Below, piece after piece: positions 16,363-22,986 of a DNA stretch of 41,809 bases; within the stretch, counting starts at the first letter, position 1, and every line of letters starts with the position of its first letter. The notes under the pieces were generated by a model that worked only from the letters and a program-made list of their open reading frames with translations, searched no databases and was not told the origin of the DNA. Origin of the DNA: an uncultured Saprospiraceae bacterium (GTDB lineage Bacteria; Bacteroidota; Bacteroidia; Chitinophagales; Saprospiraceae); contig CAJQRD010000036.1 of the NCBI GenBank assembly GCA_905480605.1, positions 1-41,809 on the forward strand, written 5' to 3'. The translations under genes were made by a program, and so were the position numbers.

Positions 16363-16407
16363 AATTTATTTTTAATAATTCTAATTTTATAATAGATAAT
16401 TAATAAT

Positions 16408-16420
16408 AATAAACGCACAT
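16408..16420 (+). repeat. 13-bp direct repeat, left copy (matches the start of the next gene)
   Basis: AATAAACGCACAT is identical to 16747-16759, which encodes residues 3-6 of the ACMSD-like protein. Read in register, the left copy (ATA ATA ATA AAC GCA CAT) resembles a decayed start of that gene. This is compatible with an insertion between two copies of a duplicated target, or with a partial duplication. Confidence 0.55.
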
Positions 16421-16546
16421 AGGATTGATATCAATTTTTTAAATAATCAAATTTGTGATATTATAGCGGCATTATGAATTTTAGGTGGAAAAAATTTAAA
16501 ATCTGTTAAAAAACGATGGCATGTTTGAGCTGAAAGCGAGTTTGCA

Positions 16547-16657
16547 CTTGTTTAGGATTTTAAAGTTTTGGAACCGTTAAGAAATATAGACAGCCTAGAC
16601 TTTTTTGTTTCGTTTTTGTGTCATGACAAAAATGAAAGCCGTGCCGGCGAGGCAAAG
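16547..16657 (+). repeat. 111-bp dispersed repeat, copy 1
   Basis: It runs from CTTGTTTAGGATTTT to GGCGAGGCAAAG and aligns without gaps to 22876-22986; I count about 98 of 111 identical bases. Shorter shared blocks (TGAATTTTAGGT at 16475, TGAGCTGAAAGC at 16526) precede it in the same order as in the other copy. It lies about 85 bases upstream of the ACMSD-like gene, in the same orientation. The rest of 16363-16741 is AT-rich with no gene. Confidence 0.85.
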
Positions 16658-16741
16658 GAAGAGTATTGAATTTATTATGAATTGTATTTAATATTTAATT
16701 AAAATAGTTCAATGAAAATACACTATTAAGATAAATAAATA

Positions 16742-17806
16742 ATGAGAATAAACGCACATTCACATCTGTTGCCTTATCCAGAACAGATTCCTCAATTCAT
16801 GAAGGACAAAGAAATTTTCTGGATTGATGATTCCCGAAAGTTTATGTATTCAAAAAATTGGAAACGGCCAGTTACTGATCCCAGTTTCTTTTTGAATGAG
16901 AAAATGGAATGGATGGAACGCAATAATATTGATCATGCTGTTGTTCTCAACCTTTCTCAACTCTATGGCAATGGTTTGCGCCAAGAAGAAATGAAGCAAG
17001 TGCTAAGGTTTCAGAATGATTTCAATGCAGAAGTACAACACAATCATCCAGATAAATTTACAACGGGATTTGTTGTGCACGCAGGGTTTGTAAAAAGTGC
17101 ATTGTGGGAAATGGAAAGATGTGTTGAGAAATTGGGGTTACGTGTTTTATGTTTGCCTACACATTATATGGATTCAGTTGGAACTTGGAGAACAATTTTT
17201 GATGAAGAAACTGAACCCATTTTTGAATTGGCGAATAAGTATAAACTGGCTGTAGAAATTCATCCATACGATGGAGAGAAGTTTATAAAATTAGAAAACA
17301 CGGCTTGGCGTTTCCATTTGGTTTGGATGTTAGCTCAATGTGCAGATTCATATCATTTTTTTACATTAAATGCATACCAAGAAAAATATCAAGACATGAG
17401 AGTTTGTTTTGCTCATGGTGGTCAATTGGCACAAATTAGTTTGGGCCGGAGAATCCAAGGGTTTGATGGTCGTCCAGATCTATTTAAAGGCAAATCACAT
17501 CCTAGAAAAGCAATTGGACATTCAAACATATTTTTTGATACACTTGTTCATGACACTGACTCCTTAGAATTGATGGTAAGAAGGAACGGTACCGATCAAA
17601 TAGTTATGGGTTTAGATGATCCTTACCCACTAGGTGAAATGGAAAGTGAATCACAGTCTTCTTATCCAGGAAAATTACTGGACTTGGCAATGGAACGCGA
17701 TATTATTAATAAGGATCAGTACCAAGATATTTGGGAAACAAATGTGATGCGTTGGTTAGGAGATGAACAATCAGCAAAAATTAAGAAAGCGGTAAATGGG
17801 AAATAA
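16742..17806 (+). CDS. Amidohydrolase-2 family decarboxylase, probable ACMSD
   Basis: 354 residues of the TIM-barrel amidohydrolase-2 family, to which 2-amino-3-carboxymuconate-6-semialdehyde decarboxylase (ACMSD, NbaD) belongs. Metal and catalytic residues line up: HSH at 6-8, EIHPYD (His174), FAHGG (His225) and GLDDPYPLGEME (Asp292/293). ACMSD removes CO2 from the product of 3-hydroxyanthranilate ring opening. The gene is somewhat longer than classical ACMSDs (~330-340) and is assigned mainly by motif order and by its place between the semialdehyde dehydrogenase and kynureninase. It overlaps kynureninase by 11 bases. A 13-bp piece of its 5' end is repeated 340 bases upstream. Confidence 0.85.
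   Translation: MRINAHSHLLPYPEQIPQFMKDKEIFWIDDSRKFMYSKNWKRPVTDPSFFLNEKMEWMERNNIDHAVVLNLSQLYGNGLRQEEMKQVLRFQNDFNAEVQHNHPDKFTTGFVVHAGFVKSALWEMERCVEKLGLRVLCLPTHYMDSVGTWRTIFDEETEPIFELANKYKLAVEIHPYDGEKFIKLENTAWRFHLVWMLAQCADSYHFFTLNAYQEKYQDMRVCFAHGGQLAQISLGRRIQGFDGRPDLFKGKSHPRKAIGHSNIFFDTLVHDTDSLELMVRRNGTDQIVMGLDDPYPLGEMESESQSSYPGKLLDLAMERDIINKDQYQDIWETNVMRWLGDEQSAKIKKAVNGK
16747..16759 (+). repeat. 13-bp direct repeat, right copy
   Basis: Second copy of AATAAACGCACAT, inside codons 2-6 of the ACMSD-like gene. Together with 16408-16420 it brackets a 326-base segment holding the dispersed repeat. Confidence 0.55.
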
Positions 17807-19076
17807 ATACAATTTTGAGAATACAGTTGATTTTGCTAAACGGCAAGATTCACAAGATGAATTGAAGGAATTTAGGAATAGATTTCATCATCCAATTGAT
17901 GATAAGGGCCACCAGCATATATACTTATGTGGAAATTCACTTGGCTTGCAACCTAAGTCCACTGAATCCAAGATTCAACAAGAACTTTTAGATTGGAAAA
18001 AGTATGGAGTTGAAGGACATTTTAATGCTAAGAACCCTTGGATGCCTTATCACGAGTTCTTGACGGAAGCTATGGCAGAAGTGGTAGGTGCTAAAAAGGA
18101 TGAAGTAGTCGTGATGAATACACTGACAGTCAATTTGCATTTGATGTTGGTTTCATTTTATAAGCCGACCAAAACGAGATATAAAATATTGATTGAGTCG
18201 GATGCTTTTCCATCTGATAAATACGCGGTACAATCGCAAATCAAATGGCATGGTTACGATGAGAAAGATGCATTGATTGAGTTAAAGCCAAGAGAAGGTG
18301 AAGTTTGCTTGAGGCATGAAGATATTGTAGAGTATGTGCTTGAACATGGGGATGAGATTGCTATGATAATGTTGGGCAATACGAATTATTATACAGGACA
18401 GTTTTTTGATATGAAATCCATTACAGAAGTGGGGCATCAAAAAGGTTGTGTTGTTGGATTTGATTGTGCACATGGCGCAGGGAATGTAGAATTGAATTTA
18501 CATGATTGCGGAGCAGACTTTGCAGTATGGTGCAGTTATAAATATTTAAATTCTGGACCTGGAAGTTTGGGAGGTTGCTTCGTGCACGAACGCCATATAA
18601 AAGATAGGAATATTCCAAAATTAGCAGGATGGTGGGGACACAATAAAGATACCAGGTTTGGTATGCGCGATGGCTTCGATCCTATCCCTACTGTTGAGTC
18701 TTGGCAGTTGAGTAATCCACCAATATTATCAATGGCAGCTGTGTGGGCATCTCTGGAAATTTTCCAGGAGGCCGGAATGTCAAACCTAAGAAAGAAGGCC
18801 AAACGAATGACAAGTTACTTAGAGTTTCTTGTAAATGATTTGGGTAACGAGTCTATTTGTATTATAACTCCAGACAATGAAAACGAAAGAGGAAGTCAAT
18901 TGTCTATTCAGGTAAAGAATGCAGATCGAAAGTTGTATGATAAAATCACAGCGGATGGCGTTATTGCTGATTGGCGTGAGCCAGATGTAATACGGATTGC
19001 TCCAACGGCATTGTATAATAATTACGAAGATTGTTGGAGGTTCGTTGAGTGTTTGAGAAAGGGTTTAGATGGGTGA
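17796..19076 (+). CDS. kynU: Kynureninase
   Basis: PLP-dependent cytosolic enzyme that cleaves 3-hydroxykynurenine (or kynurenine) to 3-hydroxyanthranilate (or anthranilate) plus alanine. It has 426 residues, the normal length. The N-terminal YLCGNSLGLQPKST motif, the PLP-pocket region GFDCAHGAGNVELNLHDCGADFAVW and the Schiff-base lysine in SYKYLNSGPG (Lys249) are all present, with GWWGH soon after. It starts with an ATG 11 bases inside the preceding gene, so the two are translationally coupled. KMO lies 684 bases downstream, separated by a four-helix-bundle gene and repeats that look inserted. Confidence 0.97.
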   Translation: MGNKYNFENTVDFAKRQDSQDELKEFRNRFHHPIDDKGHQHIYLCGNSLGLQPKSTESKIQQELLDWKKYGVEGHFNAKNPWMPYHEFLTEAMAEVVGAKKDEVVVMNTLTVNLHLMLVSFYKPTKTRYKILIESDAFPSDKYAVQSQIKWHGYDEKDALIELKPREGEVCLRHEDIVEYVLEHGDEIAMIMLGNTNYYTGQFFDMKSITEVGHQKGCVVGFDCAHGAGNVELNLHDCGADFAVWCSYKYLNSGPGSLGGCFVHERHIKDRNIPKLAGWWGHNKDTRFGMRDGFDPIPTVESWQLSNPPILSMAAVWASLEIFQEAGMSNLRKKAKRMTSYLEFLVNDLGNESICIITPDNENERGSQLSIQVKNADRKLYDKITADGVIADWREPDVIRIAPTALYNNYEDCWRFVECLRKGLDG

Positions 19077-19138
19077 AAGTAGATAGGCAGGTGACAGGAG
19101 CGAGATAAGAGGAGCCAGCTAGAAGTGATTGATTGTGG

Positions 19139-19158
19139 TTAACGGTTTACGGATAACG
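19139..19158 (-). repeat. Inverted piece of the CCGTAAA-type repeat, upstream of the four-helix-bundle gene
   Basis: GGTTTACGG within 19144-19152 is the reverse complement of the unit of the 19650-19760 array; surrounding bases (TTAACGG, GGATAACG) look like degenerate units. A purine-rich stretch (GACAGGAGCGAGATAAGAGGAG, 19092-19113) precedes it. The four-helix-bundle gene thus has TTTACGG-type sequence on both sides, in opposite orientation. Confidence 0.4.
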
Positions 19159-19258
19159 ATTGTTTGGTATTTTTTAAGCGTTCAGTTTTTTTTGAAATAT
19201 AATTTCGACCTATTGTTTACTTTTTAGTGAAAAAATCATTTAAAGTAAAGATGAGTAT

Positions 19259-19621
19259 ATGTCTAAGTTTAAAGAATTAAGAATTTGGCAAGAAAGTATG
19301 ATTTTAGCAGAAATGGTTTATCGTATTATAAAGAATTCAAATTTTAATAATGATTATCGAATGATGGATCAATTACATGGATCTTCTATATGTGTTCCAT
19401 CTAATATCGCAGAGGGCGAAGAGTGTGGTTATATGAAAAATCAAATAAAATATCTGAACATAGCAAAGGGTAGTGCGGCAGAATTAGTCACACAATTAAT
19501 ATTGTCCCAAAGAGTCGGTTATATTAAGGAAAGTGAACTCATTTTACTTGAAAATAAAGCACATAAAATTATTGCTTCAATTAAGAGGTATATTCATGTA
19601 AAAAAGAGACAAGTGGGTTGA
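19259..19621 (+). CDS. Four-helix-bundle protein (S23/Avd-like, 23S rRNA intervening-sequence family)
   Basis: 120 residues with the family hallmarks: FKELRIWQESMILAEMVYRI at the start, the central SICVPSNIAEG loop, then KYLNIAKGSAAELVTQL and a basic C-terminus (KRYIHVKKRQVG). Relatives form positively charged pentameric four-helix barrels. Some are encoded in 23S rRNA intervening sequences and one (Avd) is the accessory protein of diversity-generating retroelements. No rRNA or reverse transcriptase is nearby. The gene sits between kynU and kmo with repeats on both sides, so it is probably a recent insertion into the operon (inference). Function unknown; nucleic acid binding is likely. Confidence 0.88.
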   Translation: MSKFKELRIWQESMILAEMVYRIIKNSNFNNDYRMMDQLHGSSICVPSNIAEGEECGYMKNQIKYLNIAKGSAAELVTQLILSQRVGYIKESELILLENKAHKIIASIKRYIHVKKRQVG

Positions 19622-19649
19622 ACCTATACAAGCTGTTTTTTATTTATAA

Positions 19650-19760
19650 CCGTAAACCGTAAACCGTAAACCGTAAACCGTAAACCGTAAACCGTAAAAC
19701 AGCAAACCGTAAACCGTAAACCGTAAAACCGTAAAACCGTATAACCGTAAAACCGTAGAA
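19650..19760 (+). repeat. CCGTAAA tandem array abutting the kmo start codon
   Basis: Seven perfect CCGTAAA units (19650-19698), a short interruption (ACAGCAAA), two more 7-base units, then mostly 8-base variants (CCGTAAAA, CCGTATAA, CCGTAGAA) up to base 19760; kmo begins at 19761. About 14 units in all. The array fills the whole leader and ribosome-binding region of kmo. Open frames through it on the other strand are repeat artefacts. Confidence 0.93.
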
Positions 19761-21122
19761 ATGAAAACAATAATAGTAGGCGCAGGACTTTGTGGATCAT
19801 TGCTCGCTGTAAGATTGGCGCAGAGAGGACATAATGTAGTGATGTATGAGAAAAGGGATGATATGCGCAAAGCAAGTAATGATTCAGGAAGATCAATTAA
19901 TTTGGCGTTATCTGCGCGTGGGTTGATGGCACTTGAGCGTGTTGGATTAAAGAAGACAATTGTGGAAGATTGCATTCCAATGAAAGGTCGTTTGATTCAC
20001 CCATTAGGAGGAGATACTTTCTTGTCACCATATAGTGGCAGAGATGAAGATTATATAAACTCAGTTTCTCGTTCAGGGTTGAACATCTTATTGTTGAATG
20101 AGGCTGAAAAGTTAAGTAACGTTGAAATTAAATTTGACTATAATGTTACAGATGTTGACTTATCGAAAGCCCATATTAAAGGAATTGACATGGGTGGAAA
20201 TGAATTTACCGATGATGCAGATTTGGTAATTGGCACAGATGGGGCAGGATCAGTTGTTCGAAGATCAATGATGTCTCAAACCACTAAATTATTGTTTAAT
20301 TATTCGCAAGATTTTTTGCGTCATGGTTATAAGGAGTTGAGTATTTTGCCTGCTGATGGTGGAGCATTCAAAATTGAAAAAAATGTATTGCATATTTGGC
20401 CAAGAGGGCATTTTATGATAATAGCATTACCAAATCTGGATGGCAGTTTCACTTTGACAATGTTTCATCCCTATGAAGGCGAAACAGGATTCAATACTTT
20501 GGATACGAAAGATAAGGTCAAGGCAATGTTTGAAAAATACTACAGTGATTTGCTGCCTTTTATTCCTCACTATCTTGATGAATATTTTGAAAATGCAGTG
20601 GGTACATTAGGAACAATAAAAGCGTATCCTTGGCAAGCTTATGGAAAGACATTAATTATGGGAGATGCGGCGCATGCTATCGTACCATTTTATGGTCAAG
20701 GAATGAATGCATCATTCGAAGATGTAAGAGTATTTGATGATATGCTGGATCTTTACGGTGATGACTATGAAAAAGTATTATTTAATTTTCAAGAATCCAG
20801 AAAGGAGAATGCAGATGCCATTGCTGATTTGGCAATTGACAATTTTTATGAAATGAGAGATCATGTAGACGATAAAGCATTTATGTTGAAGCGTAAATTG
20901 GAAATGCAACTTGAACAAAATTACAGTGATTACTATTCTAAATATTCATTGGTCACTTTTCGTCCTGAATTGGATTATAACACTGCTATGCTTTTAGGTC
21001 GGCAACAAGATAAGTTGTTGCTGGGTATAGTAGAAAAAGAAAGCAGTGATTGGAACCTAGCTGATGTTATGTCTCAAATTAAAAACCTTCATACAAATTT
21101 TAACAATGAGTCTAGAAAGTAA
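19761..21122 (+). CDS. kmo: Kynurenine 3-monooxygenase
   Basis: FAD-dependent aromatic hydroxylase that converts L-kynurenine to 3-hydroxykynurenine with NADPH and O2. It has 453 residues. The N-terminal dinucleotide fold IIVGAGLCGSLLAVRLAQRGH (GxGxxG at 7-12) is followed by SGRSINLALSARGLMALERVGL, a signature of KMO, and the second FAD motif MGDAAHAIVPFYGQGMNASFEDV lies near residue 300. The ATG directly follows a tandem-repeat array, so its translation initiation region is made of repeats, unlike any other gene here. Its last 17 bases overlap the deaminase gene. Confidence 0.96.
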   Translation: MKTIIVGAGLCGSLLAVRLAQRGHNVVMYEKRDDMRKASNDSGRSINLALSARGLMALERVGLKKTIVEDCIPMKGRLIHPLGGDTFLSPYSGRDEDYINSVSRSGLNILLLNEAEKLSNVEIKFDYNVTDVDLSKAHIKGIDMGGNEFTDDADLVIGTDGAGSVVRRSMMSQTTKLLFNYSQDFLRHGYKELSILPADGGAFKIEKNVLHIWPRGHFMIIALPNLDGSFTLTMFHPYEGETGFNTLDTKDKVKAMFEKYYSDLLPFIPHYLDEYFENAVGTLGTIKAYPWQAYGKTLIMGDAAHAIVPFYGQGMNASFEDVRVFDDMLDLYGDDYEKVLFNFQESRKENADAIADLAIDNFYEMRDHVDDKAFMLKRKLEMQLEQNYSDYYSKYSLVTFRPELDYNTAMLLGRQQDKLLLGIVEKESSDWNLADVMSQIKNLHTNFNNESRK

Positions 21123-22875: not shown

Positions 22876-22986
22876 CTTGTTTAGGTTTTTAAATCTTTGG
22901 AACCGTTAAGAAATACAGATAGCCTTGATTTTTTTGTTTAGTTTTTGTATCAAGACAAAAATGAAAGCCCTGCCGGCTAGACAAAG
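22876..22986 (+). repeat. 111-bp dispersed repeat, copy 2
   Basis: Gapless match to 16547-16657 (about 98 of 111 bases by hand count), in the same orientation and again upstream of a plus-strand amino-acid catabolic gene. It starts two bases after the closing stem of the candidate structured RNA. The remaining DNA to the saccharopine dehydrogenase start (22987-23146) is AT-rich without recognisable features. Confidence 0.85.

What the first reader, a model, noticed from the sequence alone, without database searches (positions are those of the whole stretch)
19077..19760. Four-helix-bundle gene plus TTTACGG/CCGTAAA repeats inserted in the kynurenine operon
All other junctions of the cluster are overlaps or gaps of 7-11 bases, except this 684-base gap and the 380-base gap at 16363. 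The gap holds an S23/Avd-like gene, a tandem CCGTAAA array to its right and an inverted, degenerate TTTACGG piece to its left, after a purine-rich stretch. Relatives of this protein travel in rRNA intervening sequences or serve retroelements. The gene and flanking repeats may form an undescribed mobile or repeat-associated unit.
Basis: partly seen in the sequence, partly recalled or inferred. Interest (0 to 1): 0.72.

Follow-up and report, generated by a model that had tools for sequence, protein, structure and literature searches.

The report
S23 gene cassette with repeat arms
A small gene of the S23 four-helix-bundle family, flanked by mirrored arrays of seven-base repeats, sits between two genes of a tryptophan-breakdown operon; the same arrangement with other repeat sequences recurs in many bacterial phyla, which suggests a widespread cassette related to the intervening sequences known from ribosomal RNA genes.

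Summary
Between kynU and kmo lies a 684-nt insert with an S23 gene (TIGR02436/PF05635), about 15 AACCGTA heptamers to its right and a short degenerate inverted counterpart to its left. Eight same-genus relatives with kynU beside kmo lack the gene. Other S23 genes do not share this repeat sequence, but they share the architecture. Of 138 S23 loci from the genus, the family and many phyla, 98 have left and right flanks matching as inverted repeats above score 23 and 78 above 30.64 (95th and 99th percentiles of mismatched pairs in the many-phyla set); the window scores 30. Of 30 ParE-family control loci, 1 and 0 do. Arms are mostly 7-nt tandem repeats, differ between loci, and are usually G-rich left of the gene. 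The protein is under purifying selection. A different genus carries another S23 lineage at the same junction, pointing to recurrent insertion. A published rRNA intervening sequence (Coxiella) holds the same parts: S23 ORF, terminal inverted repeats, heptamers. I read this as an intervening-sequence-like cassette living in mRNA operons; transcript excision and the origin of the arms are inferred. Ten searches of open-access papers found no description of it.

The parts
19077..19136 (+). purine-rich left margin after the kynU stop codon, possibly a decayed array
   Evidence: 72% purine; the nearest relative has 12 nt between kynU stop and kmo start
19137..19161 (+). left arm, degenerate TTTACGG-type heptamers
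   Evidence: TRF 19137-19158 period 7, 3.1 copies; 25-nt match to the reverse complement of the right arm
19259..19621 (+). S23 / 23S_rRNA_IVP four-helix-bundle gene, 120 aa, calculated pI 9.4
   Evidence: TIGR02436 3.1e-26, PF05635 6.1e-28; family profile matches PDB 2gsc (3.9e-34) and 2rld (1e-29); pI
19648..19757 (+). right arm, about 15 copies of AACCGTA (CCGTAAA), some 8-nt units
   Evidence: TRF score 161; period-7 identity 90% over 60 nt
17796..19076 (+). kynU (kynureninase), gene to the left
   Evidence: TIGR01814 1.3e-136
19761..21122 (+). kmo-like FAD monooxygenase, gene to the right; starts 4 nt after the array

Best explanation
It is one member of a widespread class of small cassettes: an S23/IVP gene between two mirrored arms of short tandem repeats, found mostly between co-directional genes of operons. 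Shown: the anatomy, its recurrence in Bacteroidota, Cyanobacteria and other phyla, arms whose sequence differs between loci yet matches within a locus, purifying selection on the protein, and two S23 lineages that do not group together at the same kynU-kmo junction. Inferred: in the polycistronic transcript the arms pair into a stem with the S23 ORF in the loop; the stem is cut by a double-strand RNase, as reported for rRNA intervening sequences, so that the neighbouring genes stay translatable; the basic S23 protein binds this RNA; the arms turn over by repeat slippage and one arm is re-copied or selected to match the other. rRNA intervening sequences with S23 ORFs would be the same cassette lodged in rRNA.
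For: Inverted flanks: of 138 S23 loci (141 located, 3 dropped for short flanks) 98 score above 23 and 78 above 30.64, the 95th and 99th percentiles of mismatched pairs in the many-phyla set; there 59 and 47 of 80 pass; in genus plus family 39 of 58 pass their own 95th (24.05) and 14 of 58 their own 99th (43.2). Controls: 0 of 30 ParE-family loci above 30.64, 1 above 23; 7 of 286 other ORFs in the S23 loci above 30.64, all seven 42-283 nt from a cassette. Best period of 156 arms: 7 in 62, 14 in 38, 8 in 20, other in 7, none in 29; left arm G>C in 75, C>G in 10, equal in 3 of 88. Cyanobacteria: 13 of 27 non-redundant loci above 30.64. No S23 gene at the kynU-kmo junction of 8 relatives. L083 of another genus has an S23 gene between kynureninase and the kmo-like gene, 39% identical; one clade with the window's rejected, AU p = 0.008, quick tree. 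L011 and L063, close kin next to the same gene, have arms that match within (50, 36) but not across (17, 19). dN/dS 0.07-0.25 in the 4 of 8 pairs where dS could be computed. Co-directional genes on both sides in 83 of 121. No rRNA model hit in 79 of the 80 GTDB loci. PMC4990558 (passages): 23S IVS with S23p ORF, 28-bp terminal inverted repeats, heptameric repeats, RNase III cleavage in vitro.
Against: Arm mismatches show no excess of G-U-compatible over A-C-type changes (94 against 91), so no sign of selection at the RNA level. 51 of 138 loci show neither inverted nor direct flanking repeats at the thresholds used, and 9 only direct ones. The window's own inverted match is moderate and its full-length fold pairs left and right flanks by 27 bases only. 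38 of 121 loci lack co-directional genes on both sides. In several same-site groups arms match as well or better across copies, or hardly at all within one. PMC4990558 concludes that S23p is probably not made in Coxiella and that its ORF is decaying. Inverted heptamer pairs occur at 70 places in one Xanthomonas in a paper without mention of S23, which also finds only a few such pairs in Nostoc (PMC4692102, passages). No transcript, RNase or mobility data were available.
Confidence: 0.45

Rival explanations
1. Operon-control module: arms and S23 protein tune the ratio of upstream to downstream gene products, and the cassette is kept by host benefit rather than as a selfish element.
For: Kin of one lineage at the same site in several species (forward HpaE-HpaD group) with purifying selection; frequent position between co-directional genes.
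Against: Eight relatives have no such gene at the kynU-kmo junction; sites belong to unrelated pathways (phenylacetate, homoprotocatechuate, beta-oxidation, dTDP-sugar) and cas6-cas4; some copies ride in ISL3-type transposons.
Confidence: 0.25
2. Passive repeats: intergenic DNA of these genomes gathers heptamer arrays by polymerase slippage and hairpin copying, and S23 genes merely tolerate or prefer such DNA; the arms do nothing for the cassette.
For: The CCGTAAA-type repeat stands at four further places of the own genome without a flanked S23 gene; no G-U excess; 24 of 138 loci have directly repeated flanks, 9 of them only direct; heptamer arrays without mention of S23 are published (PMC4679880, PMC4692102).
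Against: Flanks are inverted repeats around S23 genes and not around 30 ParE-family genes of the same family's genomes; left arm is G-rich relative to gene direction in 75 of 85 non-tied loci; L011 and L063 arms differ yet each matches itself.
Confidence: 0.22
3. Retroelement part: the S23 protein is an Avd-like helper of a reverse transcriptase encoded elsewhere, and the arms are products of reverse transcription.
For: PF05635 resembles Avd (PMC10053308, passages); the own genome has five PF00078 matches.
Against: 7 of 14 genus genomes carry S23 matches and no PF00078 match at 1e-8, among them G008 with six S23 genes (draft genomes, so some may be missed).
Confidence: 0.05

Closest known systems
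23S rRNA intervening sequence (IVS) with S23p ORF, as in Coxiella and Leptospira (PMC4990558, passages read)
   Same: S23-family ORF between terminal inverted repeats; heptameric tandem repeats before the ORF that vary in copy number among strains
   Different: Known ones lie inside rRNA genes and are cut by RNase III; here the cassette lies between protein genes (no rRNA model hit in 79 of 80 GTDB loci) and processing is untested
Heptamer repeats: TAACTGA repeats (PMC4679880) and GGGAATC / GGGGA(C/T)T repeats of Xanthomonas and Nostoc (PMC4692102); STRR of cyanobacteria (name recalled)
   Same: Intergenic 7-nt tandem arrays in Cyanobacteria, Bacteroidetes and others, some as inverted pairs
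   Different: A term search of both texts finds no S23 or helix bundle; here the arrays are mirrored around an S23 gene and the unit differs from locus to locus
23S_rRNA_IVP genes in cas loci (PMC3936711, passages)
   Same: S23-family gene among operon genes, often by cas4 or cas6, as in L114 here
   Different: The passage read reports no flanking repeats
Avd of diversity-generating retroelements
   Same: Resemblance of PF05635 to Avd (PMC10053308, passages)
   Different: No reverse transcriptase gene next to the window's gene

Membership tests
TIGR02436 / PF05635 S23 (IVP) proteins | profile match over the family cut-off | tested here: met
   91.7 bits against 24; 97.6 against 33.8
rRNA intervening sequence | insertion inside an rRNA gene | tested here: not met
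   lies between kynU and kmo; no Rfam match in the window
rRNA intervening sequence | terminal inverted repeats around an S23 ORF | tested here: met
   25-nt match above the 95th but below the 99th percentile of mismatched pairs; duplex -30.2 kcal/mol, z -4.2
rRNA intervening sequence | excision from the transcript by RNase III | not testable with these tools
   needs RNA data
Diversity-generating retroelement accessory (Avd) | reverse transcriptase next to the gene | tested here: not met
   neighbours are kynU and the kmo-like gene; the five RT matches of the genome lie on other contigs
IS element / transposon | own transposase | tested here: not met
   no other + strand ORF of 80 aa or more inside 19077-19760; but S23 genes beside ISL3-type transposases exist in Calothrix
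IS element / transposon | target-site duplication | tested here: inconclusive
   the nearest empty site is 79% identical at the kmo protein, too far to read a junction

The most novel reading that the evidence does not exclude
S23 cassettes are a class of mobile element of their own, of which rRNA intervening sequences are the known corner; the S23 protein takes part in making, extending or matching the inverted heptamer arms at the break in the target. The heptamer arrays scattered through cyanobacterial and Bacteroidota genomes would then be, in part, remains or by-products of S23 cassettes. On both sides the G-rich strand runs 5' to 3' toward the gene, as repeats added to two open DNA ends would.
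Probability: 0.2. Interest if true: 0.92.

Novelty: new variant of a known kind. Interest (0 to 1): 0.78.

Why it matters
The functionality and origin of rRNA intervening sequences and their S23 proteins (PMC4990558) and the spread of heptamer arrays in cyanobacteria and Bacteroidetes (PMC4679880) are called open in the passages read. An arrangement that ties the two together, outside rRNA and in many phyla, gives a concrete object to test: cut the arms, follow the transcript, follow new insertions. It would also give a context to many small 'four helix bundle protein' genes inside operons.

Tried and rejected
That CCGTAAA itself is the travelling signature: rejected, since the four other places with this repeat have no flanked S23 gene and other S23 genes have other units. 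That inverted arms are ordinary for small genes: not borne out by the ParE control. RNA-level selection seen through G-U wobble: no signal. A conserved motif before the ORF: GTTTAC occurs in the 90 nt before 11 of 141 genes against 2.8 expected from shuffles, 8 of the 11 in the genus-plus-family set; too weak to build on. A reverse transcriptase partner: not supported. Phage carriage: no match in 50,697 phage records. Simple flipping of one cassette at the HpaE-HpaD site: forward and inverted copies lie in different parts of the tree, so separate insertion fits better; the inverted pair itself is not shown to be a clade (p = 0.46). The FadB-like/thiolase site as one old insertion: disfavoured, p = 0.027; the rfb site p = 0.067 and the paaA group p = 0.21 are not decided (quick tree, and in the scripts the first of these was labelled acylCoADH). 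Literature: ten searches of the held open-access library brought up no paper describing S23 genes with inverted tandem-repeat arms in operons; most subscription papers and preprints are not held.

Full report
What is there. The window's kynurenine cluster is tightly packed except for two places. Between kynU (17796-19076) and the kmo-like gene (19761-21122) lie 684 nt that hold one gene, 19259-19621, of the S23 / 23S-rRNA-IVP / 'four helix bundle protein' family; the family profile matches the solved proteins 2gsc and 2rld. To the right, 19648-19757 is an array of about 15 heptamers AACCGTA; to the left, 19137-19161 is a short, degenerate, inverted counterpart, preceded by a purine-rich stretch.

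Is it an insert? I searched 14 genomes of the genus with the kmo protein; 11 matched, the window's own among them. Of the ten other full-length loci, eight (L043, L045, L046, L047, L049, L050, L051, L052) carry kynU beside kmo, and none has an S23 match (tblastn 1e-8); seven have short junctions and L049 has a gap of about 420 nt with a piece resembling a dispersed repeat of the window. The two others (L044, L048) showed no kynU match in the stretch fetched.

Not the repeat sequence but the architecture recurs. The own genome has four S23 matches. The other three have repeats nearby with other units: TGAATTA/TAATTCA at L037 (inverted score 50), a CAATG-type unit at L038 (52), and CCATAAT on one side of the decayed gene in L039 (17, not above chance). 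Conversely, ACCGTAAACCGT occurs at five places in the genome and only the window's place flanks an S23 gene; the place on contig C3 is about 3 kb from one. In the genus 12 of 14 genomes, and in a draw of the family 53 of 61, have S23 matches. Printing the flanks of the genus copies showed mirrored arrays repeatedly, with differing units.

Measurement. I scored the local match between 200 nt left of the gene and the reverse complement of 200 nt right of it, and compared this with left and right flanks taken from different loci. Genus plus family: 58 loci (61 fetched, 3 dropped for short flanks), median 32.5 against 17 for mismatched pairs, 39 above the 95th (24.05) and 14 above the 99th percentile (43.2); direct matches 17 and 12. 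Eighty loci from many phyla, the best of 548 confirmed relatives in one capped scan of the GTDB collection, chosen by likeness to the window's protein: 59 above the 95th (23) and 47 above the 99th percentile (30.64); direct 17 and 12. Together 98 of 138 exceed 23 and 78 exceed 30.64; the window's own locus scores 30. Classes at 30.64 (inverted) and 25 (direct): inverted only 63, both 15, direct only 9, neither 51. Controls: of the 30 ParE-family loci returned from the same draw of family genomes none exceeds 30.64 and 1 exceeds 23, against 31 and 39 of 58 S23 genes. Among 286 other ORFs of 120 aa or more in the S23 loci 7 exceed 30.64 and 22 exceed 23; the 7 lie 42-283 nt from a cassette. Cyanobacteria, from eight plasmid loci and three genomes: 38 loci, 1 with a short flank, 10 near-duplicates, 27 left, of which 16 exceed 23 and 13 exceed 30.64; for example GGGAACA left and TGTTCCC right in Nostoc.

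Copies in transposons. Calothrix PCC 7103 has five copies over 99% identical and two at about 83% of a unit in which an S23 gene follows ISL3-type transposase pieces, with a common right end; L249 follows a full ISL3 transposase. The seven were counted once.

Properties of the arms. Of 156 arms of at least 22 nt (88 loci scoring 28 or more) the best period is 7 in 62, 14 in 38, 8 in 20, another in 7, none in 29. The left arm has more G than C in 75 loci, fewer in 10, equal in 3. Mismatches between the arms do not favour G-U-compatible changes (94 against 91). Of 121 loci with both neighbours found 83 lie between co-directional genes; median distances are 87 and 74 nt. None of 79 of the 80 GTDB loci (L143 was not submitted), nor the window, hits an rRNA model; stretches masked in that collection could hide some.

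Same sites. Comparing both neighbour proteins showed shared sites: kynU-kmo (window, L083 of another genus), HpaE-HpaD (L059, L070, L079 forward, L063 inverted), paaA-paaB (L057, L061), FadB-like/thiolase (L054, L055, L082, L091, L110), dTDP-glucose dehydratase/RfbA (L066, L071, L080); names. L062, L068, L075 and L011 were put with these sites from one side only, the other being a contig end or another gene. L083's protein is 39% identical to the window's, and a quick tree of 59 proteins rejects holding the two together (AU p = 0.008; the window's branch is long). At HpaE-HpaD the forward copies (with L067 and L074) and the inverted copies lie in different parts of the tree.

Arms at the same sites. 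With 160-nt flanks, L012 scores 30 and L083 39 with themselves, 16-19 across; L011 50 and L063 36, across 17-19; L082 35 and L110 44, across 13-14. Only L011/L063 are likely to be one inherited insertion, so only they speak for re-matching after divergence. Against this, in the forward HpaE-HpaD group some cross matches are as high or higher (L062 with L070, 49), L061 matches L057 at 41 and itself at 30, L054 scores 10 and L091 18 with themselves, and the rfb copies score 19-25.

Selection. In eight same-site pairs pN is 0.12-0.34 and pS 0.66-0.93; dN/dS is 0.07-0.25 in the four pairs where dS could be computed (1.6-3.7, near saturation).

Reading. The nearest known thing is the rRNA intervening sequence with an S23 ORF. 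In the Coxiella paper (PMC4990558, passages) the element has 28-bp terminal inverted repeats, tandem heptamers before the ORF that vary in copy number among strains, and is cut by RNase III in vitro; the authors think its S23p is probably not made there. These are the same parts. I take the window's insert as a cassette of that kind placed in an mRNA operon: the arms pair in the transcript, the stem is cut, the neighbours stay translatable, and the basic protein (median pI 8.9 of 138, window 9.4) binds the RNA. Only the anatomy, the recurrence and the selection are shown; pairing in vivo, cutting, binding and movement are inferred. The missing G-U signal and the 51 of 138 loci without repeats stand against a universal RNA role.

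Prior work seen. PMC4679880 (abstract, section 10, passages) describes TAACTGA heptamers in Beggiatoaceae, Cyanobacteria and Bacteroidetes, possibly moved horizontally with 'no mechanism' evident; a term search finds no S23 or helix bundle in it. PMC4692102 (passages) describes heptamers in Xanthomonas and Nostoc, 70 inverted pairs in one Xanthomonas and only a few in Nostoc, likewise without S23. PMC3936711 (passages) found 18 IVP genes in cas loci, often by cas4 or cas6, as in L114. PMC10053308 (passages) notes the Avd resemblance; PMC11270868 (passages) IVP ORFs in rRNA inserts of CPR bacteria; PMC10910872 and PMC5041132 (passages) add nothing on arms. The ten searches brought up no report of the arrangement described here.

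Retroelement idea. Reverse transcriptase (PF00078, 1e-8) is matched in 5 of 14 genus genomes; 7 genomes have S23 matches and none. Phage records gave no match.

Noticed in passing
window 16363-16741, core 16601-16632; also 22930-22961: The other long gap of the cluster holds a dispersed repeat (TTTTTTGTTTCG...GACAAAAA): 7 copies in the own genome within 3 mismatches, two of them in this window, and copies in 5 of 13 relatives. A similar piece lies in the kynU-kmo gap of L049.
   Followed up: partly
window 19216-19249: Before the S23 gene TTTACTTTTT and AAAGTAAA form a small inverted repeat; a similar GTTTAC box stands before several other S23 genes, mostly of the family.
   Followed up: partly
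L015:4117-4249, L040:1954-1998, L041:2232-2390: TTTACGG-type arrays between genes without an S23 gene; L041 shows a partly inverted continuation. Could be solo arms.
   Followed up: no
L038:1437-1710: Tandem array of a roughly 24-nt unit that contains TTTACG, on a contig that also has an S23 gene about 3 kb away.
   Followed up: no
L230, L232, L235, L238, L241, L244, L247: In Calothrix PCC 7103 an S23 gene is carried next to ISL3-type transposase pieces in seven copies, five over 99% identical and two at about 83%.
   Followed up: partly
L077: In another genus member an S23 gene stands between tryptophan 2,3-dioxygenase and the amidohydrolase (73% identical to the window's 16742-17806), so this cluster was hit at another junction too.
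   Followed up: partly
L067, L074: These S23 genes group with the forward HpaE-HpaD copies in the tree; L074 follows an HpaD-like gene, so kin seem to sit at neighbouring junctions of one operon.
   Followed up: no
L114: S23 gene between cas6 and cas4 on a Pseudanabaena plasmid, with long AAAAGCT and AAAAGCC arrays on its two sides.
   Followed up: partly
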